A stretch of DNA of 64,000 nucleotides from Hyphomicrobiales bacterium. Its GTDB lineage: Bacteria > Pseudomonadota > Alphaproteobacteria > Rhizobiales > RI-29. Below are positions 23,888-33,540 of this stretch, one piece after another. Numbering within the stretch: the first letter of the stretch is position 1; each line of letters opens with the position of its first letter. A program made the translations under genes and the position numbers. The notes below the pieces were generated by a model. The model was not told where the DNA came from and did not search any database. It saw only the letters and a list, made by a program, of their open reading frames with translations. Location of the stretch: positions 1 through 64,000 of the forward strand of contig WGLQ01000027.1 of assembly GCA_016125495.1 (NCBI GenBank). Direction: 5' to 3'.

Positions 23888-26800
23888 TTACTCCGCGGCC
23901 GAGCGCAGGGCCTGGCGCACCTGACCGAGTACGGCCCTGAGAGCCGCCGGCTTCAGAGGCTTGCGCAACAGCGGAATTTCCCGCTCGCGCAGCTCACGCT
24001 GCAATTCCGGCGACTGGTCCGCTGTGATGATGGTCGCGGGAATACTGGCCCCGGCCTTCGCCCGGATCGCCTCGATCGCTTCGAGCCCCGTCCCCTGATC
24101 GAGATGGTAGTCGGCGAGAATTGCATCGGGCCAGCGCCCGGCCCGCGTGATCACCTCGAGACACTCCGCCTGCGAGTGCGCCGTCGACACGGTACAGCCC
24201 CAGCCCTCGAGCAGCATGCGCATGCTCTCGACGATACGCGGTTCGTTGTCGACACAAAGCACCGACAGACCGCCGAGACTTCCGACCGCCCGAGCAACCT
24301 CTCCCTCGACCCCCTTGCGCACCACCGGCCCCGCGACCGGAACGGTGATCGCGAACATGGAGCCCTTGCCGACGGTCGAAACCACGGAGACCGGTTGCTT
24401 CAGGACACGCCCGATCCGCTGCACGATGGAAAGCCCGAGCCCGAGGCCCCGCACGTTGCGCGACGAGCTTTCGAGGCGGTGGAATTCCTTGAAGATGAGC
24501 GGCTGCATGGCGCGCGGGATGCCGGGGCCGGTGTCCCACACCTCGATCCGCACGTGACCCGCCTGCCGCCTGCAGCCGATCAGGACGCGGCCGCGCTCGG
24601 TGTACTTGATGGCGTTGGAGAGGAAATTCTGTAGCACCCGTCGTAGCAATCGCCGGTCCGAGCGCAACCAGAGTGTGGTCGGCACCGTCTTCAATGTAAG
24701 ACCGGCATCCTCGGCAACGGGCGTGAACTCCACCACCAGCCGGTCGATCAGCTCGTTCAATGGAAAGACCGAATATTCCGGTTCGAGCTTTCCGGTATCG
24801 AGCCGCGAGATATCGAGCAGTGCCCCGAGAATATCCTCCACCGCTTCGAGCGAGGCATCGATGTTGTGCACGAGGCGCCCATGCTCGCCCTCTCCCGCGC
24901 GGTCGACGAGGCTCGAGGTGTAGAGCCGCGCGGCGTTGAGGGGCTGGAGGATGTCGTGACTGGCCGCGGCGAGGAACCGTGTCTTGTCGAGGTTGGCCTC
25001 GTCCGCCTTGGCCTTGGCTTCGGTCAGCGCGTGATTGACCTTGGTGAGTTCGGCGGTCCGGTCCCGCACCCGCCGTTCGAGCGTCTCATTGGCCCGTGTC
25101 AGCGCATCGGCCGCCTCCACACGCTCCGTGATGTCGGTGAAGGTCGTCACGATGCCCCCCTGCGGCATCGGATTGGTCGCGATTTCCAACACCCGCCGGC
25201 CATGCTCCAAGCGCTCGTGGAATGTCTCCTTCGTGCGCACCAGCCGCCGCATCCGATCCGCCACGATCGTCTCGATCGGCCCGGCTCCGAAGTTGCCCTG
25301 CTCGGCCACGGTCCTGAGCAACTGCTCGAGCGGAATTCCGATCCGCCCGGCCTCCTCCGGCAACCGCAGCAGGTTACGGAACTGCCGGTTCCAGCAGATG
25401 AGGCGCAGGTCCTTGTCGAACACGGCGATGCCCTGCGCCACCTGATCGAGCGCCGACTGCAGGAGATCGCGATTGTATTGCAGCGCCTCGGAGGCATCGT
25501 CGAGGAGACGAATTGCCGAGCGGTCGCCGAGATTGTGGCGCTTGAGGAGCAACGAGAGGACCAGTCTCGAGGAGGCCGCGCCGATCGCGCTCGCCAGCAG
25601 GTGTTCGGTGAAGCGCAGTGTGTGCAGATCGGCTTCCGCGTTCGCGTTGAGCACCATGTCGCGACCGCGCGCATGCTCGTTGAAGGCCCGCTCTGCCCGC
25701 TCCGTCCCGAGATATCGTCCCGTCGCCAGCATGAGGTCGCCGACCGTGATCGTCGAGCGCCAGAGCCGCACCGCCGAACCGGCGGGCATCGGCGGCATGT
25801 CGCGGCCGACGAAGATACTCGCCTGCATGCGTTCGACCGGATCCGAGCGCGACAGCAGGGAGACGATCACGAGCCCGCCGACGTTGGCGAGCATCGAGAA
25901 CAGAACGCCATGTGCGATCGGCGACATCTCGAGGCCGAACAGCGCCTGCGGGCGCAGCGCCGCGATACCGAAAGGTCCATGGGCGAGCAGCCCCTCGATA
26001 TTCCACCCCGCTGCCGAGAACCACGGCAGCAGCAGCGTGTAGACCCAGATCGCAAAGCCGAGCGAGATCCCCGTGAGCGCGCCGCGCGCGTTCGCCCGCG
26101 ACCAGAACAGCCCCCCGAAGAACGCCGGCGCGAGCTGGGCGATCGCCGCGAAGGAGAGCAATCCGATCGAGCCGAGCGCCTGCCCCGAGGCGAGCGTGCG
26201 ATGGAAGCCGTAGGCGAGCACCAGCACGACGATGATGGAGATCCGGCGGATGTTGAGCAGCAGTGGCCCGATCTCCTCGAGCGTATCGGGATCCGCCCGC
26301 CCGATCGCCTGACGGCGCAGCATGAGCGGCACGACGACGTCGTTGCAGATCATGATCGCGAGCGCCACGCTCGCCACGATGACCATCGCCGTCGCCGCCG
26401 ACAGCCCGCCGATGAAGGCGATCATGGTGACGAACCCGGCCCCGGCCGCCTTCGGCAGCGCCAGCACGAAGGTGTCGCCATCCACGCTTCCGTCCGTGAA
26501 CGTGACGAGGCCGGCGAGCGCGATTGGCACGACGAAGGCGTTGATCAGCAGTAGGTAGAGCGGGAACAGCCACTTCGCCCGCTGCACCTCCTTCGCGCCC
26601 CGGTTCTCGACCACCGCCACATGGAATTGGCGGGGCAGCAGCACGATGCACACGAGACTGAGGAACGTGATGGTGATCCAGGTCTCCGGGCTGAACCCGC
26701 TGGTGAAAATCCGCTCGACCGCGGGCGAGGCCATGGCGCGCGACCAGAGATCGCCGAAACCATCGAACATCCAGAACGTGACGAAGCAGCCGACGGCGAG

Positions 26801-27424
26801 GAACGCGACGAGCTTGATCACCGATTCGAGCGCGATCGCGAGGACCAGGCCGTCCTGATGCTCGGTGGCATCGATGTGCCGTGTGCCGAAAAGGACGGCG
26901 AAGAGGGCGAGCGACATCGCCACCGCGAAGGCCACGTCCCCGGCCGGCGAGTTCGCCGCCGCCAAGGCGCCGATCTCGTCGCCGAGGATCGTCGTGACCG
27001 AGCCCGAGACGGCCTTGAGCTGGAGCGCGATGTAGGGGATCGTTCCGGCGACCGCGATCAGTGCGGCGAGCGAGGCGAGGGTCTGGTTCTTGCCGTAGCG
27101 CGCGGCGATGAAGTCGGCGACCGAGGTGATGTTCTGGGTCTTGGCGAGATGGATGATGCGCAAGAGCAGCGGCCATCCGAAGATCATCATCAGAACCGGT
27201 CCGATGTAGACCGGCAGGAAGTCCCCACCCGATCGCGACGCGATGCCGACACTGCCGAAGAACGTCCAGGACGTGCAGTAGACCGCGAGTGACAGCGCAT
27301 AGATCATCGGCCGTGCGCTCGGGCCGGTCTTGGCTTTCGCGGCCCGCCAGTCGCCGTAGTAAGCGACCGCGAACAGGATACCGAGATAGCTGAGCGATGT
27401 CAGAAGGATGACCCACCCGTCCAT
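23888..27424 (-). CDS. hybrid sensor histidine kinase fused to sodium symporter domain (CrbS/MxtR-like)
   Basis: This 1178-residue inner-membrane sensor has, in order, an SSS symporter domain of about 12-13 helices (1-500), a STAC-like linker with a PAS segment (GIAVFDKDLRLICWNRQF) near 640, a coiled coil, HisKA (AAASHDILQPLNAARL), HATPase (NAIKY, DTGPGIP, GLGLGLS) and a C-terminal receiver with ILADYHLDQGTG. This is the order of CrbS (Vibrio) and MxtR (Pseudomonas), which govern acetate metabolism through a LuxR-type partner. The start at 27424 has GGGAGG upstream; the longer frame adds only 12 residues. The regulator at 23153 is convergent. Confidence 0.92.
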   Translation of the reverse strand: MDGWVILLTSLSYLGILFAVAYYGDWRAAKAKTGPSARPMIYALSLAVYCTSWTFFGSVGIASRSGGDFLPVYIGPVLMMIFGWPLLLRIIHLAKTQNITSVADFIAARYGKNQTLASLAALIAVAGTIPYIALQLKAVSGSVTTILGDEIGALAAANSPAGDVAFAVAMSLALFAVLFGTRHIDATEHQDGLVLAIALESVIKLVAFLAVGCFVTFWMFDGFGDLWSRAMASPAVERIFTSGFSPETWITITFLSLVCIVLLPRQFHVAVVENRGAKEVQRAKWLFPLYLLLINAFVVPIALAGLVTFTDGSVDGDTFVLALPKAAGAGFVTMIAFIGGLSAATAMVIVASVALAIMICNDVVVPLMLRRQAIGRADPDTLEEIGPLLLNIRRISIIVVLVLAYGFHRTLASGQALGSIGLLSFAAIAQLAPAFFGGLFWSRANARGALTGISLGFAIWVYTLLLPWFSAAGWNIEGLLAHGPFGIAALRPQALFGLEMSPIAHGVLFSMLANVGGLVIVSLLSRSDPVERMQASIFVGRDMPPMPAGSAVRLWRSTITVGDLMLATGRYLGTERAERAFNEHARGRDMVLNANAEADLHTLRFTEHLLASAIGAASSRLVLSLLLKRHNLGDRSAIRLLDDASEALQYNRDLLQSALDQVAQGIAVFDKDLRLICWNRQFRNLLRLPEEAGRIGIPLEQLLRTVAEQGNFGAGPIETIVADRMRRLVRTKETFHERLEHGRRVLEIATNPMPQGGIVTTFTDITERVEAADALTRANETLERRVRDRTAELTKVNHALTEAKAKADEANLDKTRFLAAASHDILQPLNAARLYTSSLVDRAGEGEHGRLVHNIDASLEAVEDILGALLDISRLDTGKLEPEYSVFPLNELIDRLVVEFTPVAEDAGLTLKTVPTTLWLRSDRRLLRRVLQNFLSNAIKYTERGRVLIGCRRQAGHVRIEVWDTGPGIPRAMQPLIFKEFHRLESSSRNVRGLGLGLSIVQRIGRVLKQPVSVVSTVGKGSMFAITVPVAGPVVRKGVEGEVARAVGSLGGLSVLCVDNEPRIVESMRMLLEGWGCTVSTAHSQAECLEVITRAGRWPDAILADYHLDQGTGLEAIEAIRAKAGASIPATIITADQSPELQRELREREIPLLRKPLKPAALRAVLGQVRQALRSAAE

Positions 27425-27620
27425 CGCCCTGCCTCCCTCACCCGTGGGTCCGGCCGCCACCCAACCGATGCAACCTTATCAGCGGAAATGTCGTTCCTAT
27501 TCGAGCCATTGTGGATAGTCGGCGCTAAGACTAACGTCGCAATGCTCGGCACGGTCCTACGGCCGTGAACCCATTTGTTTGCCCGCAGCCCACCAGCCGC
27601 GATCAATGAGGAACCAACCC

Positions 27621-28025
27621 ATGGGCCTTCTCCAGGAATTCCGCGATTTTGCCTTGAAGAGCAATTTCATCGACATGGCCACCGGCATCGTGATCGGCGG
27701 CGCGGTCGGCACGGTCGTGAAGTCGCTCGTCGAGGATATCATCATGCCGCCGATCGGCATGATGCTCAATGGCGTCGACTTCTCCGAGCTGAAGCTGACA
27801 CTCAAGAGCGCCACGGCCGACGCCCCGGCCGTCGCCATCAACTACGGCTCGTTCATCAACTCGCTGATCAGCTTCGCGATCATCGCCTTTGCGATCTTCA
27901 TGATCATCAAGGCCTACAACACCGCCAAGACGCGCTTCGAGAAGGAGCAGGCCGCCGCGCCGGCCGTGCCGCCACGTTCCGAGGTGCTGCTGCAGGAAAT
28001 CCGCGACGCGCTCGTCAAGCGCTGA
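27621..28025 (+). CDS. mscL: large-conductance mechanosensitive channel MscL
   Basis: This 134-residue pentameric channel opens under membrane tension to protect against osmotic down-shock. It has the MscL N-terminus (GLLQEFRDFALKSNFIDMATG), TM1 with the pore-lining GIVIGGAVGTVVKSLVEDI, a periplasmic loop, TM2 (FINSLISFAIIAFAIFMII) and the cytoplasmic bundle ending LLQEIRDALVK. The ATG at 27621 follows GAGGAACCAACCC; an upstream in-frame ATG at 27579 would add residues not found in the family. It is monocistronic, with a strong terminator 66 bp after the stop, and divergent from the hybrid kinase. Confidence 0.96.
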   Translation: MGLLQEFRDFALKSNFIDMATGIVIGGAVGTVVKSLVEDIIMPPIGMMLNGVDFSELKLTLKSATADAPAVAINYGSFINSLISFAIIAFAIFMIIKAYNTAKTRFEKEQAAAPAVPPRSEVLLQEIRDALVKR

Positions 28026-28090: not shown

Positions 28091-28124
28091 CACCCGCCTC
28101 GGGCTTCGAGGCGGGTGCGTTTTT
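28091..28124 (+). terminator. Rho-independent terminator of mscL
   Basis: A perfect 11-bp stem, CACCCGCCTCG / CGAGGCGGGTG with a five-base loop, is followed by CGTTTTT. This is the best intrinsic terminator in the window. It ends at the stop codon of the convergent response-regulator gene. Confidence 0.9.
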
Positions 28125-28738
28125 CAGTCCCTTTCCGAGCCCTCGCTCGCATCCGTCCCACTGTCCTCGGCGGCTGTCGCCTCGTCGAAAGCGGGCTCGC
28201 CGCCTGCATCGAAGGCACCGTCCTCGACCTCCGACGGCTCTTCGACGGGTGGCCTGAGATCACGGATGAACTCGTCGGCTGCGCTGCCGAGCGTGAGCCG
28301 TGCGAACACCTCGCCGATGCCGACCGCCGAAAGGTCGTCCTTGTGGATGACGTCGGCTGCCCCGGCCTCCATCACCTGGAGCTTGCGCTTGCGGTTGAGG
28401 TGGCTCGAGATGATGATGATCGGCCCCTTGTATCCCCAGCGCCGCAGGTACGGCATGTTCTCGACGGCGGTGTCGCTCGGCGGCAGGTAGTCGTCGAGGA
28501 AGACCACGTCGGGGATCCGCTCCTGCAGGCAGTCGAGGCCGAGGCCGATCGAACGCGCCGAGCGCACGTCGATGTCGTAGCCGAACCAGACGTGCAGCAC
28601 GGCCCGCAGCACCTCCCCGTCGAACTCGTTGTCGTCGATGACGAGGAAATCCTTGTAGGGCGGCAATTGCGACTTGAGCCGCTGCAGATCGGCACGATGC
28701 GCGAGCACATTGCGCCCGGAATTGGAGTTGCGGCTCAT
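28124..28738 (-). CDS. receiver-domain response regulator without output domain
   Basis: This 204-residue protein has a receiver fold: FLVIDDNEFD (Asp pair near 35-36), phospho-acceptor Asp in VVFLDDYLPP (near 81), Ser in IIIISSH and Lys in VIHKDD. After about residue 155 it has only an acidic, probably disordered tail, so it lacks a DNA-binding or enzymatic output. It is the last gene of the GTPase operon, 145 bp after the histidine kinase, and is the obvious phosphate acceptor for that kinase. It may act by protein-protein contact, for example back on the GTPase or OmpA protein; that is inference. Confidence 0.85.
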   Translation of the reverse strand: MSRNSNSGRNVLAHRADLQRLKSQLPPYKDFLVIDDNEFDGEVLRAVLHVWFGYDIDVRSARSIGLGLDCLQERIPDVVFLDDYLPPSDTAVENMPYLRRWGYKGPIIIISSHLNRKRKLQVMEAGAADVIHKDDLSAVGIGEVFARLTLGSAADEFIRDLRPPVEEPSEVEDGAFDAGGEPAFDEATAAEDSGTDASEGSERD

Positions 28739-28883
28739 CTGTGTGGGTGTCCTGCTTGACTGGTTCCAAGGTCGCCCGGGAGGCGACCGAAATTACCGAA
28801 AGCTGCAATTCCCCCCACGGAACCGCTTCGAATGAAATGGCCGAACACGGACCCGGCCAGACGGACTGGGACGAGCGCAGCCA

Positions 28884-30149
28884 TCATTGATCTTTCCTTT
28901 CGACCCGATGCGGCCAATCGACATGAAAGGCCGTACCGCGTCCCGCATGGAGTGGCGACTCGATATCGACTTTCGCGTTGAAGCGGTCACAGAGTTTCTT
29001 GACCATCGATAGGCCCAGACCCGATCCGTCCGGCGACACACCTTTCGCCGATCGGAATGGCTTGAAAACCATCGACTGCGCCGCGCGGGGAATCCCGGGA
29101 CCATCGTCGGCGACGGAAAAGCGCGTTTCGTCGCCGACGCGCTGCGCCGAGATGCGCACGAGCCCCGTTGCCCGGTCGTGGTGCTTGACGGCGTTGGAAA
29201 CGAGGTTCCGCAAGACGACATCGAGCGCATCCGGTACGGTCTCGATCATGGGCCAATCGCCGGCGATGCGAAACGTGATGCCCGCATCGCCATCCTGGCC
29301 GATCGCCACCTCGAGACCGTCGACGATGCGCGAAATGAGGCGATGCGTATCGACCTCCTCCACGAGTTCGAGATCGCTGGTCCCGCGCGCATAGCTGAGC
29401 AGGCCCGTGATCATCTCGCTCATGAGTGCGACCTGCCGTTGCAGACGCCGATGGTCCTGGCGCAAGAGCGAGACGCGCGGCTCGGCGTCCCCGGCCCCCT
29501 CGCTCTCATCCTCCGGCAAAGCGGCCTCGAGGGTGACACGCATGGCCCTGAGCGGCGCCTTGAGATCGTGGGAGATTACGTGCGCGAAGGCATCGAGCTC
29601 TCGATTGACGCGCGATAGCTCGACGTTCGTGCGCTGCAGACGCTCCGCGGACGCCGCGAGCGCGCTTTCGGCCGCCCGCAATTCAGCCTCCGCCACGCGC
29701 CGGGCCCGCACCTGCCGGATCACCTCGTGCTCGAGTTGGGTCAGCGCCGCAACCCTCTGGAGCAGAACGAGATAGCCATCCGGCACGCGAAACACCTGGG
29801 CCGTCACCTTGACGGGATCGGAGGCCAGGGGATCGAGACCGATGTTGTGCAGCGTCAGATGGCGGCCGCCGATTTCGAGCCCGTGCAGCAGCCCCTCCAT
29901 GCGGGCGAGGAACGGCAGCGCACGGCTCGCCTCGATCCCGGGCTCAACCGCGATCCAGCCCGCATTGAACGCCGACCGCACCGTTAGGTTCTCGTCGAGC
30001 GAAAAGACCGCCATGAGGTCGTGACTGGCGAGGTGGGCCACCGCGCTGAGCGCGAGCGGATCGCCGGCTACTCCCGATGACGCGGTCCCGATCACTTTCC
30101 GATCGTCAATTGCGGCCTTTTCGGCATCGATCGTCATCTTGTCCGTCAC
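28884..30149 (-). CDS. sensor histidine kinase of the GTPase/OmpA operon
   Basis: This 421-residue kinase has no obvious membrane segment. The first 140 residues contain a PAS-like region, followed by a coiled coil (about 145-205). HisKA follows with AFAHVISHDLKAPLRAM (phospho-His in ISHDLK) and HATPase_c with LRNLVSNAVKHHD, DDGPGIP and GSGLGLSMVKKL. The GTG at 30149 was chosen because it overlaps the GTPase stop as GTGA, a 4-bp coupling overlap; ATG 30137 is the alternative. As a soluble kinase it may read the state of the adjacent small GTPase rather than an outside ligand. It most likely phosphorylates the receiver protein encoded next. Confidence 0.9.
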   Translation of the reverse strand: MTDKMTIDAEKAAIDDRKVIGTASSGVAGDPLALSAVAHLASHDLMAVFSLDENLTVRSAFNAGWIAVEPGIEASRALPFLARMEGLLHGLEIGGRHLTLHNIGLDPLASDPVKVTAQVFRVPDGYLVLLQRVAALTQLEHEVIRQVRARRVAEAELRAAESALAASAERLQRTNVELSRVNRELDAFAHVISHDLKAPLRAMRVTLEAALPEDESEGAGDAEPRVSLLRQDHRRLQRQVALMSEMITGLLSYARGTSDLELVEEVDTHRLISRIVDGLEVAIGQDGDAGITFRIAGDWPMIETVPDALDVVLRNLVSNAVKHHDRATGLVRISAQRVGDETRFSVADDGPGIPRAAQSMVFKPFRSAKGVSPDGSGLGLSMVKKLCDRFNAKVDIESPLHAGRGTAFHVDWPHRVERKDQ

Positions 30150-30682
30150 CCGCCTCGGGAGCGTCGCTCCAGCACCGTCGCGACGGCGCCGAACGCTTCG
30201 CCGACCATCTCGCCCGTGAGCGCGCTCGTCAGCATGACGCGCTCGGCATGCCGGCCGAGCGTCTCGTAGGTGCCGGACCTCGCTTCGGGCACCAGATCGA
30301 TTTTGTTCACCGCCTGGATGAATGGTCGACCCGGAAAGCATTCCACGAACTCGCTGCCCAAAACCTCGGCCGTCGCCTCGGTCTCCGGTCGTGTCGCATC
30401 CGAGACGATCAACGCGGCATCGGCTCCGAAGCTGTAGTAGTGTTGAAGAACGCTCTCGGCCATGTCGCCTTCGATATCCCAGATCATGAGGGACACCGGG
30501 TCGGCCTTCTCGCCGCCGTTGGAGCCGTCCGGATCACCGCCCGGCTCGATCTCGAACTGGTAGATGTCGACACCCACCGTCGCCCGGTAATCCGCCTCGA
30601 AGCGCCCGAGCTTGAGGCGCCTGACGAGCGATGTCTTGCCGACCGCGATCTCGCCCAGCACGATGACCTTGTAGGCTGCCAT
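30146..30682 (-). CDS. Ras/Rab-like small GTPase
   Basis: This 178-residue single-domain GTPase has all G boxes: P-loop GEIAVGKT (10-17), switch I Thr35 (RATVGVD), G3 WDIEGD (68-73), G4 NKID (126-129) and G5 SAL (153-155, usually SAK). The residue after DxxG, the catalytic Gln in Ras, is Asp73, so intrinsic hydrolysis may be slow or need a partner. An acidic Gly-rich insertion lies at 47-62. No membrane or lipid-anchor signal is visible. The start lies 7 bp after the OmpA gene stop, with AGGAG immediately before ATG, and its stop overlaps the kinase start. It is presumably a switch between the OmpA protein and the kinase. Confidence 0.92.
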   Translation of the reverse strand: MAAYKVIVLGEIAVGKTSLVRRLKLGRFEADYRATVGVDIYQFEIEPGGDPDGSNGGEKADPVSLMIWDIEGDMAESVLQHYYSFGADAALIVSDATRPETEATAEVLGSEFVECFPGRPFIQAVNKIDLVPEARSGTYETLGRHAERVMLTSALTGEMVGEAFGAVATVLERRSRGG

Positions 30683-30686
30683 CTCC

Positions 30687-32969
30687 TCAACGTTCTCCAG
30701 CGAATCCGCGCTCGAATTCGACGCGCCTGTTGGGGCTTCCCGGACCATTGAAATTGGAAAGCACCAGCCGCTCGGCCCGCCCGACGGTGATGACTTGCTC
30801 GTCCTTGACCCCGAACTCGAGGAGGATGGCCTTGACGGCCTCGGCGCGATTGACCGCGAGCAGTTCATTGGCCGCCGCCGATCCCGCATCGTCCGTGTAG
30901 CCGACCACGCGGATGCTGAAATCACCGTCGACGAGGATCTGTGCGAGCCGCCGAAGCGCCGCCCGGGCTCGTGCGTCGTTGCGAACATTCGTTCCCGTGT
31001 CGAAGAACACGGCATTTTGCGAAATGAAATCGTCGAGCCGCTGACTGGGCGACGATAGCGTGCGCTCCAACTCGCCGAGGCGACTGCCGAGCGTTTCGAG
31101 GCTCGCCGAGACCGGTCCGAGATCGACCTGACGCTCGATCTGCGCCAACCGCCGCGACAGTGTCTCGATGACGCCGACGAGCCGAGCCACGTCCGCGCCC
31201 GCCGCCGCCGCGCCGACCTCGTTGCGCGTGTGTGCCAGATCCTGGGAAAGCACGCCGATGGCCGAATGCAGCTCGGCCAGCCGCGAGCGGGAAGCCGCCC
31301 CCGCGAGGGCCATCTCGACGTCACCGAACCGACCGACGAGTTGCGCGAGACGTTCGTCCAGCGCCTCGAGCGCGGCCTTGCTGGCCCCCTGCGTCAAATC
31401 GCGCTGGAGAACCGCGAGGGCCGCCGCGAGCGAGCCGACGCTCTGCTCGAGCGCCGCCCGATCCCGGCCACGCGCCTCGCGCTCGCCTTCGATGTCGCTG
31501 CGGCTGGCAGCCGTGCTCACCACCCTCGCGAACTCCGCCTGTTGCTCGGCGATCGCCGCGGTGCGCTGTTCGATTTCCGCGAGGCCTCGCCGCAGCGCCT
31601 CGAGTTCGCCCGTCACCGCCTGCAACTGCCGTGGATCGATCGCCTCGACGAGCCGCGCGACACCTGAAAGACGCTCGTTGAGTGCATCCGTCCTGCCGGC
31701 CAGTTCGCGCGCCGTGGCCAAGTCCGGAACGATGGTGATATCGTTGCGGAGCTGGCGCGGGCTCAGTTCCGCATCTATGCGCGACAGCAATGCGTCACGA
31801 TCCGCCAGCGACTGCGCCAGCCCCTCGAGCGTGATCCGACGACCGAGATCGTCCACCCGGACAGTGACGGGATAGCCCTGGAAGGACGGCAGTTCCTGCT
31901 TCATGGCGAGCACCTGCTCGCGTACCGTGTTCTCGCGCCAGTCCACGAACGTGGTCCAGCCGAGCCAGGCCACCAGCGCCGCCGCGACGAGACCGAGCAT
32001 CCCGGTCGCGAGGCCGTTGCCGCCGCTGCGCTTTTCCGAAATCTCCGTCAATTCGCTTTCGAGCCGGGAGGCAAAGTCCGGCAACACGGCGAGCAGGTCC
32101 GCCCGCGGCGTGGCATTCGCGCCCGCGAGCGCGTCGGCGTGCTTGGAAAGCACCTCGAGAAAGATGCCATCCAGCGCCCGCTCGATGTTGTGCGGCACGG
32201 CGGACGAGCACTTGGCGGCGATGAGGTGGGCGGGCGATGCCCTGAGATAGATGCGGTGGGACTGGAGGTCGAGCGTCTGCAGCGCGCCCTCCTCGGCGCG
32301 GAAGGCCTCGCGCGCGAATTCGGTGAGCGCGGTCAGGAAGCTGCCGAGCAAGCGCTCGCGATCGCCGCCCCTTGCTACCTCGGCCGCCCTGCCGGCCATC
32401 GCGCCGCCCTGCCGGCCATCGCCCATGTTCGCCGGTGCCGACCAGCTGTCGATCAACTCGCCCGAGCCGCGCCTGACGAGATAGAGTGCCTCGACCCGTG
32501 GCGCGTTGAGTTCGGCCAGCACGAGTTCGCTGTAGGGTCGCCCGGTCGCGAAGCTCTTCATGCGCAGGTAGTAGCGCCGCGCCGAGAGCCCGCTCTCGAG
32601 CCGCCGGTTGATCTCCTCCATGAGGTCGCGCATCGCGCTCGCGACATAGGCCGACACCAACTGACCGGTGATCGGATAGAGCGCCTCGACCATCTGGTCG
32701 CGCGAGTTCACGATCTCATAGCGGATGGTCGAGACCACCATCGGCGCGATCGAGCGCGCCAGTTCGTCGTGGCGCTCGACCTCGGCGTCGCGCAGGGCCC
32801 CGGCGATGATCCGCGTCACGCTCGCTTGCAGCGCTTCGTCGTCTCCAGCCTGTTGCTCGAGCCGCGCCACCCGCTCGCGCACGCCATCGAGCCGCGATCG
32901 CTCCTCTCCAACGAGCAACGCCTTGAGGGTCTCGAGCGCCCGTTCTTCGTTGTTGCCGGCCGCGCTCAT
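30687..32969 (-). CDS. membrane-spanning OmpA-domain protein with cytoplasmic longin/roadblock-like region
   Basis: This 760-residue protein has a cytoplasmic part (1-317) with helical segments including MVEALYPITGQLVSAYV. At 157-280 there is a beta-beta-alpha-beta-beta-beta-alpha pattern resembling longin/roadblock folds that bind small GTPases. One membrane helix follows (about 318-342), then a BON-like domain (VTVRVDDLGRRITLEGLAQ, about 368-415), a long periplasmic coiled coil (420-630) and a C-terminal OmpA peptidoglycan-binding domain (GYTDDAG, then NRAEAV). It could link the cell wall to the GTPase encoded next. Its ATG overlaps the preceding coiled-coil gene stop as ATGA. The longin/roadblock reading is a prediction by eye. 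Confidence 0.85.
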   Translation of the reverse strand: MSAAGNNEERALETLKALLVGEERSRLDGVRERVARLEQQAGDDEALQASVTRIIAGALRDAEVERHDELARSIAPMVVSTIRYEIVNSRDQMVEALYPITGQLVSAYVASAMRDLMEEINRRLESGLSARRYYLRMKSFATGRPYSELVLAELNAPRVEALYLVRRGSGELIDSWSAPANMGDGRQGGAMAGRAAEVARGGDRERLLGSFLTALTEFAREAFRAEEGALQTLDLQSHRIYLRASPAHLIAAKCSSAVPHNIERALDGIFLEVLSKHADALAGANATPRADLLAVLPDFASRLESELTEISEKRSGGNGLATGMLGLVAAALVAWLGWTTFVDWRENTVREQVLAMKQELPSFQGYPVTVRVDDLGRRITLEGLAQSLADRDALLSRIDAELSPRQLRNDITIVPDLATARELAGRTDALNERLSGVARLVEAIDPRQLQAVTGELEALRRGLAEIEQRTAAIAEQQAEFARVVSTAASRSDIEGEREARGRDRAALEQSVGSLAAALAVLQRDLTQGASKAALEALDERLAQLVGRFGDVEMALAGAASRSRLAELHSAIGVLSQDLAHTRNEVGAAAAGADVARLVGVIETLSRRLAQIERQVDLGPVSASLETLGSRLGELERTLSSPSQRLDDFISQNAVFFDTGTNVRNDARARAALRRLAQILVDGDFSIRVVGYTDDAGSAAANELLAVNRAEAVKAILLEFGVKDEQVITVGRAERLVLSNFNGPGSPNRRVEFERGFAGER
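32381..32420. repeat. 20-bp imperfect tandem duplication inside the OmpA-domain gene
   Basis: The 20-base unit at 32381-32400 recurs at 32401-32420 with only the first two bases changed (shared core GCCGCCCTGCCGGCCATC). It is not a multiple of three, so the two copies are read in different frames, encoding parts of GRQGGAMAGRAAEV in the cytoplasmic loop of the protein. Copy-number change would shift the frame. Confidence 0.7.
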
Positions 32970-33310
32970 GGCTCGCTCCGGCCATTTGCGGGGCTACTTG
33001 CATGCCCGGTTGCCCGCTCCAGGTCGTCGGCGAGTTCGCGCAGACGCGCCGCCAGCACCGCGCGCGTTTCCGCTTGGCTCTGTGCCAGCTTGGACTCGAG
33101 TTCGGCGATCTGCTGTTCGAAGCGCTGGCGATCCGCGCGCCCCGCGCTCTCCAGGGCCGCCACCCTGCTGGTCAGCTCCTGGAGGCCGCTTTCGTGGCGC
33201 CGCGCCGCCTCGCCGAAAAGGAGTTCACGCACTTGGCGAAGCGCATCGACGCCGTTCGCGGGCGCCACCCCTATGGCGAGCGGCTTGATCTCGTCCCCAG
33301 GACCGGACAT
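32966..33310 (-). CDS. small coiled-coil protein heading the GTPase operon
   Basis: This 114-residue protein has no recognised family. After a short N-terminus, a long heptad-rich helix covers about residues 28-100 (for example LQELTSRVAALE and FEQQIAELESKLAQSQAE), predicting a coiled coil. No signal peptide or membrane helix is seen, so it is cytoplasmic. Its TGA overlaps the ATG of the OmpA-domain gene (ATGA). It has the same heptad style as the N-terminus of that protein and may dimerise with it. The start at 33310 has GGAGGG upstream; the longer frame is not supported. Confidence 0.72.
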   Translation of the reverse strand: MSGPGDEIKPLAIGVAPANGVDALRQVRELLFGEAARRHESGLQELTSRVAALESAGRADRQRFEQQIAELESKLAQSQAETRAVLAARLRELADDLERATGHASSPANGRSEP

Positions 33311-33496: not shown

Positions 33497-33540
33497 GCGA
33501 GCGAGTGAGTGAGTGAGTAAGTGAGTGAGTGAGCGAGCGA
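33497..33540. repeat. 11-copy tetranucleotide repeat (GYRA) upstream of the GTPase operon
   Basis: Eleven 4-base units run GCGA x2, GTGA x3, GTAA, GTGA x3, GCGA x2, so the order of unit types is mirror-symmetric. It lies in the 276-bp gap between the M24 peptidase gene and the coiled-coil gene, about 190 bp before the latter's start, where the operon promoter should be. Slipped-strand length change could alter promoter spacing. Confidence 0.8.

What the first reader, a model, noticed from the sequence alone, without database searches (positions are those of the whole stretch)
28124..33310. Operon joining a wall-binding OmpA protein, a Ras-like GTPase and a phosphorelay
Four genes are locked by overlap or near-zero spacing: coiled-coil (ATGA overlap) OmpA protein, 4-bp gap to the small GTPase, then GTGA overlap to a soluble histidine kinase; a receiver-only regulator follows after 145 bp. 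The OmpA protein has a periplasmic peptidoglycan-binding end and a cytoplasmic region predicted to be longin/roadblock-like, the fold that regulates small GTPases in eukaryotes, archaea and MglA/MglB of Myxococcus. This suggests a route from cell-wall state, through GTP/GDP switching, to a phosphorelay. I know of no characterised system with this exact composition, but I cannot search.
Basis: partly seen in the sequence, partly recalled or inferred. Interest (0 to 1): 0.88.

Follow-up and report, generated by a model that had tools for sequence, protein, structure and literature searches.

The report
Wall-anchored switch for bacterial Rab-like GTPase
This is a four- to five-gene bacterial signalling operon of a kind first described by computation in 2015 ('Group 1 Rup' GTPase systems); structure prediction suggests that its unexplained cell-wall-binding protein carries the same fold that controls Rab GTPases in our own cells, so the missing regulator of this uncharacterised GTPase family may be encoded next door.

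Summary
In detail: coordinates, overlaps and domains check out, and the gene set is conserved. A scan of GTDB genomes found 260 relatives of the OmpA protein; in 73 of the 77 assessable loci among the best 80, the Ras-like GTPase gene lies directly downstream. The composition is not new. Wuichet & Søgaard-Andersen (2015) described it as 'Group 1 Rup': Rab/Ras-like GTPase, coiled-coil protein, an 'unknown domain'–TM–OmpA protein, and a kinase or diguanylate-cyclase output. The library holds no experiment on any of them. What is added here: (1) the unknown cytoplasmic domain (residues 146–282) is predicted to be a longin/roadblock fold; all 50 best structural rows belong to that superfamily, yet it escapes Pfam and profile–profile searches. 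(2) In Flavobacteriaceae the same operon exists with a soluble longin protein, no TM and no OmpA, so the longin part, not wall binding, is the constant core. (3) The kinase starts with a PAS-like domain shared by two kinase classes and a LuxR-type regulator: a modular GTPase output. (4) The coiled-coil and OmpA proteins share an N-terminal RELLFG motif. 'Phosphorelay' is too strong; it is a kinase–receiver pair. Wall sensing and GTP control of the kinase remain inference.

The parts
32966..33310 (-). Small coiled-coil protein (114 aa) with N-terminal QVRELLFGE motif
   Evidence: only weak coiled-coil hits; a profile of the OmpA protein's N-terminus has these upstream genes as nearly all of its best non-OmpA hits across about 88 loci; an ORF with a loosely defined motif precedes the longin gene in 70 of 80 loci
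30687..32969 (-). Longin-TM-OmpA protein (760 aa): cytoplasmic helices and longin-like domain, one TM helix, periplasmic coiled coil and OmpA domain
32664..32690 (-). Family signature VEALYPITG (residues 94-102) in the long helix 67-142; most invariant segment of the family
   Evidence: Invariant columns in 64 sequences; helix 67-142 in the model
32124..32534 (-). Longin/roadblock-like domain, residues 146-282, order a-b-b-a-b-b-b-a
   Evidence: Model; Foldseek and VIA-align; no Pfam hit, no PDB sequence hit, no profile-profile match to roadblock
31944..32018 (-). Single predicted transmembrane helix, about residues 318-342
   Evidence: Hydropathy maximum 1.88 at 324-342
30756..30977 (-). OmpA peptidoglycan-binding domain, residues 665-738; GYTD, NRA and NRRVE motifs present
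   Evidence: PF00691 E 2.4e-13; motifs
30146..30682 (-). Rab/Ras-like small GTPase (178 aa), Rup type: GEIAVGKT, T35, WDIEGD, NKID, TSA; no Gln in G3; no C-terminal Cys
   Evidence: only copy of this family in the genome
28884..30149 (-). Soluble histidine kinase (421 aa from GTG), effector
   Evidence: HisKA and HATPase_c; H, N, D, G boxes present
29748..30062 (-). PAS-like N-terminal domain of the kinase (residues 30-134), then a signalling helix; shared by the effectors of related loci
28124..28738 (-). Receiver-only response regulator (204 aa) with acidic tail and no DNA-binding domain
   Evidence: VIDD, FLDD, SS, K motifs; orthologue directly after the kinase in 24 loci

Best explanation
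The operon encodes a Group 1 Rup signalling module. A Rab-like GTPase is docked at the inner membrane by a transmembrane protein whose cytoplasmic part carries a longin-type domain and whose periplasmic part binds peptidoglycan. The longin domain, alone or with the coiled-coil partner that shares its N-terminal RELLFG helix motif, binds the GTPase and sets its nucleotide state, acting as exchange factor, activator or regulated scaffold. Force or wall state transmitted through the single TM helix would change that activity. The GTPase in one nucleotide state then binds the PAS-like N-terminal domain of the soluble histidine kinase, switching phosphotransfer to the receiver-only regulator, which acts by protein contact because it has no DNA-binding domain. 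Shown: gene set, synteny, motifs. Predicted with good confidence: longin and PAS folds. Inferred: GTPase-longin binding, GTPase-PAS binding, wall input, direction of signal.
For: Longin-protein gene and GTPase gene adjacent in 73/77 loci collected with the longin protein only. AlphaFold2 gives the roadblock/longin strand and helix order at pLDDT about 90. All 50 listed structural neighbours are longin/roadblock superfamily members, led by Lokiarchaeal longin (Z 12.1, 131 residues, 2.9 A), with C9orf72-SMCR8, FLCN, Mon1-Ccz1, Fuzzy-Inturned, TRAPP and MglB (Z 9.3), many of them GEFs, GAPs or scaffolds of small GTPases. As an internal control, the kinase's N-terminal domain, also PAS-like in overall shape, returns PAS domains only. 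The GTPase profile's 60 best solved relatives are Rabs. In Flavobacteriaceae the longin protein is stand-alone in the same gene order. Effectors share one N-terminal domain but end in HisKA kinases, HisKA_3 kinases or a LuxR-type DNA-binding domain, as expected if that domain reads the GTPase. Longin/roadblock domains bind small GTPases in a conserved way (PMC3521125; PMC10933270).
Against: The longin assignment rests on predicted structure only: no Pfam match for the window protein, no solved relative by sequence, hhalign probability under 1% against proteobacterial roadblock alignments although roadblock groups match each other at 97-99%. Some longin-fold proteins do not regulate GTPases (SNARE longins, AP sigma chains appear among the hits). 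No complex could be modelled. OmpA and TM are absent from flavobacterial members, so wall input is not universal. In several lineages the effector gene is elsewhere in the neighbourhood or not found.
Confidence: 0.5

Rival explanations
1. The longin-like domain is only a docking or dimerisation platform (as in Ragulator), and the GTPase's nucleotide state is set by something else, for example the effector's N-terminal region acting as GAP with a glutamine in trans, as Wuichet & Søgaard-Andersen suggested.
For: Ragulator subunits are among the best Foldseek hits. None of 72 GTPases has Gln at the Ras Gln61 position, so catalytic help in trans is plausible. The window kinase does have Gln in the region after the PAS-like domain (IRQVRAR).
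Against: In 49 effector domains that column is Q in 20, E in 16 and other residues in 13, and no column reaches 50% Gln, so an invariant trans-Gln is not seen in this set (it may not be the same residue the authors meant). A pure platform would not explain why each GTPase gene has its own longin gene.
Confidence: 0.3
2. Signal runs the other way, as proposed for actinobacterial conservons: the kinase and receiver control the GTPase, which positions or remodels something at the wall-anchored longin-OmpA protein (polarity, envelope machinery).
For: Conservon GTPases have been proposed to be the output of their kinase (PMC4316618). Roadblock-GTPase pairs control polarity in Myxococcus. Here the receiver has no output domain, so it could act back on the complex.
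Against: Effectors of sister systems end in kinases or in a DNA-binding domain with the same N-terminal domain, which fits an output position. 24 loci have a dedicated receiver after the kinase.
Confidence: 0.2
3. The genes are co-transcribed without acting in one pathway.
For: No interaction was tested here; the kinase and receiver genes are not always next to the core.
Against: Core adjacency in 73/77 alphaproteobacterial, gammaproteobacterial and flavobacterial loci at 25-55% identity of the longin protein.
Confidence: 0.03

Closest known systems
Group 1 Rup GTPase systems (Wuichet & Søgaard-Andersen, PMC4316618; computational, no member characterised)
   Same: Rab/Ras-like GTPase without G3 Gln, coiled-coil protein, unknown-domain-TM-OmpA protein, kinase-type output; a Mesorhizobium member (mll3243) was known
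   Different: Here a kinase plus dedicated receiver-only regulator; the unknown domain is recognised as longin-like; the invariant effector Gln is not seen in this alphaproteobacterial set
MglA/MglB of Myxococcus xanthus
   Same: Small GTPase next to a protein of roadblock/longin fold; link to response regulators
   Different: GTPase keeps the G3 Asp that MglA lacks; longin domain not detectably related to Robl_LC7 by sequence; fused to TM-OmpA
Actinobacterial conservon (CvnA-D)
   Same: Kinase, GTPase and GTPase-regulator-like protein in one operon
   Different: Conservon kinase is membrane-bound, GTPase is MglA type, regulator is free MglB type, no OmpA part, no receiver gene
Eukaryotic and Asgard longin regulators (Mon1-Ccz1, TRAPP, FLCN, C9orf72-SMCR8, Fuzzy-Inturned; Lokiarchaeal longin)
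   Same: Predicted fold; for the eukaryotic ones, pairing with Rab-like GTPases
   Different: No sequence similarity found; no DENN or TRAPP partners; bacterial membrane and wall anchor

Membership tests
Group 1 Rup GTPase system | Single-domain Ras-superfamily GTPase under 240 aa | tested here: met
   178 aa; Roc 1.2e-16, Ras 2.2e-14
Group 1 Rup GTPase system | G3 Asp kept (unlike MglA) but catalytic G3 Gln missing | tested here: met
   WDIEGD in the window; WDxxG in all 72 relatives, residue at Gln61 position D/N/G/S/E/K/A, never Q
Group 1 Rup GTPase system | Adjacent gene for a cytoplasmic coiled-coil protein | tested here: met
Group 1 Rup GTPase system | Adjacent gene: conserved unknown domain, often followed by TM helix and C-terminal OmpA | tested here: met
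Group 1 Rup GTPase system | Adjacent output gene, kinase or diguanylate cyclase/phosphodiesterase, with a shared N-terminal region | tested here: met
   Kinase; N-terminal domain shared with about 60 effectors
Group 1 Rup GTPase system | Invariant Gln in the effector N-terminal region | tested here: inconclusive
   Best candidate column is Q in 20 of 49; the published alignment was not available to identify their residue
Group 1 Rup GTPase system | Placement in the Rup clade of a GTPase tree | not tested
Longin/roadblock superfamily (fold) | Roadblock/longin order of strands and helices, matched best by longin/roadblock structures | tested here: met
   Predicted model only
Robl_LC7 (PF03259, MglB-type roadblock) | Sequence match to the family | tested here: not met
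   No PF03259 in the genome or 60 relatives; no Pfam hit for the domain; hhalign probability under 1%
MglA/MglB system | MglA-type G3 without Asp | tested here: not met
   G3 is WDIEGD
PAS domain (kinase N-terminus) | PAS fold | tested here: met
   Predicted model, pLDDT 92; structural hits PAS, Z up to 10.1; no Pfam PAS hit

The most novel reading that the evidence does not exclude
Bacterial Rab-like (Rup Group 1) GTPases are regulated by a cryptic longin domain encoded beside them, in Proteobacteria welded to the cell wall through a TM helix and OmpA domain. The Rab-longin regulator pairing, known from eukaryotes and Asgard archaea, would then also exist in bacteria, and a wall-coupled G-protein switch would control a histidine kinase.
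Probability: 0.5. Interest if true: 0.8.

Novelty: new member of a known kind. Interest (0 to 1): 0.58.

Why it matters
Rup GTPases are described as the closest prokaryotic group to eukaryotic Rab/Ras/Rho/Ran (PMC4915359, PMC4316618), and no experimental study of them turned up in the papers searched. Their regulator was unknown; the 2015 survey found none coupled to MglB. If the adjacent longin domain is that regulator, the biochemistry becomes directly testable with two soluble fragments, and it bears on whether Rab-longin pairing predates eukaryotes. It would also be a trans-envelope G-protein input to two-component signalling in common soil and freshwater bacteria such as Hyphomicrobium and Mesorhizobium.

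Tried and rejected
Sequence-only routes to the longin domain failed: Pfam on the window protein and 63 relatives (one relative hit Fuz_longin_1 at E 0.0037, otherwise scattered chance hits), PDB sequence profile search (no hit at E 1), hhalign against 26 proteobacterial roadblock proteins (no match; a first run was spoilt by wrong-strand translations and is discarded). The idea that the genome also has a classical MglB/roadblock protein was rejected at family-model sensitivity. A conserved glutamine in the longin protein or effector as a trans-catalytic residue was looked for and not found as an invariant column. The phosphorelay label was rejected: no HPt or hybrid receiver in the operon. Co-evolution analysis was considered but not run, because about 75 paired sequences are too few. 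In the region there was no sigma-70-like promoter match, which says little for this class. Literature searches found no experimental Rup study and no paper naming the domain as longin; the library lacks most subscription papers.
Full report
1. Observation. The five ORFs, their coordinates and their spacing are as described: coiled-coil 33310-32966, longin/OmpA protein 32969-30687 (ATGA overlap), GTPase 30682-30146 (4-bp gap), kinase 30149-28884 (GTGA overlap, alternative ATG at 30137), receiver 28738-28124 (145-bp gap). Pfam assigns OmpA, Ras/Roc, HisKA plus HATPase_c and Response_reg; the coiled-coil protein and the cytoplasmic half of the OmpA protein have no confident family. The active-site motifs of GTPase, kinase and receiver and the OmpA peptidoglycan-binding motifs are present. 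The genome (4.05 Mb, 99% complete) has no second GTPase of this family; the next hit has E 0.0016.

2. Conservation. In 60 genomes of the same order, 7 have the cytoplasmic domain of the OmpA protein; in 385 genomes of the class, 9 including the window's own. A scan of one genome per GTDB species with an alignment of that domain found 260 relatives; the best 80 were kept. They are mostly Hyphomicrobium, Filomicrobium, Mesorhizobium, Rhizobium, Rhodoblastus, Methylocystis and relatives, plus a gammaproteobacterial MAG (L114) and two Flavobacteriaceae (L118, L119). The GTPase was not part of the query, yet in the 77 assessable loci it is directly downstream in 73, nearby in 3 and absent in 1. 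An effector with the same N-terminal domain is found in 59 loci, directly downstream of the GTPase in 39, and an orthologue of the receiver directly follows the kinase in 24. Some of the 80 are close relatives: 63 remain at a cut of about 88% identity.

3. It is a known kind. Wuichet & Søgaard-Andersen (PMC4316618; [quoted passage not shown] They noted a Mesorhizobium member, proposed a signalling complex, and reported no Rup coupled to MglB (0 of 121). The window fits every one of these gene-content and motif features that could be tested; only their invariant effector Gln could not be settled (paragraph 7). [quoted passage not shown] No experimental study was found.

4. The unknown domain. 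AlphaFold2 on residues 1-330 with 63 relatives from the fetched loci gave mean pLDDT 81, about 90 for most of 146-282 (a loop at 181-202 is poorly predicted), with helix, two strands, helix, three strands, helix. Foldseek's best solved matches are the Ykt6 longin, Ragulator MP1/p14, COP zeta, TRAPP and MglB (best E 8e-4). VIA-align puts Lokiarchaeal longin first (Z 12.1, 131 residues, 2.9 A), then C9orf72-SMCR8, TRAPP, FLCN, Lst4, Fuzzy-Inturned, BLOC-3, Mon1-Ccz1 and others, MglB at Z 9.3. All 50 rows are of the longin/roadblock superfamily. Sequence methods see nothing, which explains why the 2015 survey could not name the domain. The statement is therefore a fold prediction, not a sequence-proved homology.

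5. The longin part is the constant core. In L118 and L119 the operon has the same order (coiled-coil, longin protein of 272-274 aa, GTPase, kinase), but the longin protein has no TM helix and no OmpA domain. Wall anchoring is found in the proteobacterial members only, as far as seen here.

6. GTPase. The 60 best solved relatives of its profile are all Rabs. Motifs GxxxVGK[ST], WDxxG and NKxD are kept; the Gln61 position is D in 34, N in 18, G in 8, S in 7, E in 3, K in 1 and A in 1 of 72. The window GTPase has no C-terminal cysteine for lipidation, so membrane recruitment would have to come from a partner, here plausibly the longin-TM protein (inference).

7. Effector. The first 150 or so residues of the kinase are shared with about 60 effectors. 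Their model (pLDDT 92) is a PAS fold plus signalling helix; the structural hits are PAS domains, although Pfam sees none. Of 63 effectors, 61 end in a kinase ATPase domain (37 members match HisKA, 21 match HisKA_3) and 2 in a LuxR-type DNA-binding domain. One input domain with exchangeable outputs suggests that this domain reads the GTPase (inference). The invariant Gln of the 2015 paper was not recovered: the best column has Q in 20 of 49; it may not be the same residue.

8. Coiled-coil protein. It shares with the N-terminus of the longin/OmpA protein the motif [VL][RK]xLLFGxE; a profile of the latter picks the upstream coiled-coil genes as nearly all of its best other hits (individual E-values only 0.001 to about 5). 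This points to a mixed helical assembly or a common binding site (inference).

9. Mechanism. Most likely the longin domain docks the Rab-like GTPase at the membrane and sets its nucleotide state, the OmpA/TM part adds an envelope input in Proteobacteria, and the GTPase controls the PAS-headed kinase and its receiver. Gene content and conservation are shown; folds are predicted; every interaction and the direction of signal are inferred. Confidence about 0.5 for this picture as a whole.

10. Verdict. Known kind of system, new member, with a testable new identification of its unexplained part. Interest 0.58.

Noticed in passing
window 33499-33537: Tetranucleotide tandem repeat (GAGT/ACTC, 9.8 copies, 88% matches) about 190 bp upstream of the coiled-coil gene start; a length-variable repeat there could alter expression of the operon.
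   Followed up: no
window 27579-28025 (+) and 28091-28117 (+): A gene that looks like the mechanosensitive channel mscL (read by eye) converges on the operon; a strong hairpin with T-run, terminator-like on the + strand, lies between them.
   Followed up: partly
window 28859-28838 (-): Terminator-like hairpin in the 145-bp gap between kinase and receiver genes; the number of such hits in the region is not above chance.
   Followed up: no
window 23888-27460 (-): 1190-aa protein that looks like a sodium/solute-symporter-like membrane part fused to PAS, histidine kinase and receiver (CbrA-like hybrid sensor, read by eye); not part of the operon.
   Followed up: no
window 32966-33310 and 32870-32969: Coiled-coil protein and N-terminus of the longin/OmpA protein share the [VL][RK]xLLFGxE motif, conserved through Proteobacteria.
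   Followed up: yes
L118, L119: Flavobacteriaceae carry the same operon with a soluble longin protein lacking TM and OmpA, followed by a kinase.
   Followed up: partly
L085, L106, L037: In Rhodomicrobium and a relative the GTPase is divergent from the longin/OmpA gene and followed by a LuxR-type regulator with the same N-terminal domain: GTPase to transcription without a kinase.
   Followed up: partly
G254:C15, G139:C12, L103: Some genomes have two longin/OmpA genes within a few kilobases (seen in G254 and G139); in L103 the GTPase lies about 2.3 kb downstream of the first, as a second copy in between would give.
   Followed up: no
L091: Longin/OmpA protein without a GTPase in 12.8 kb; possibly a split system.
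   Followed up: no
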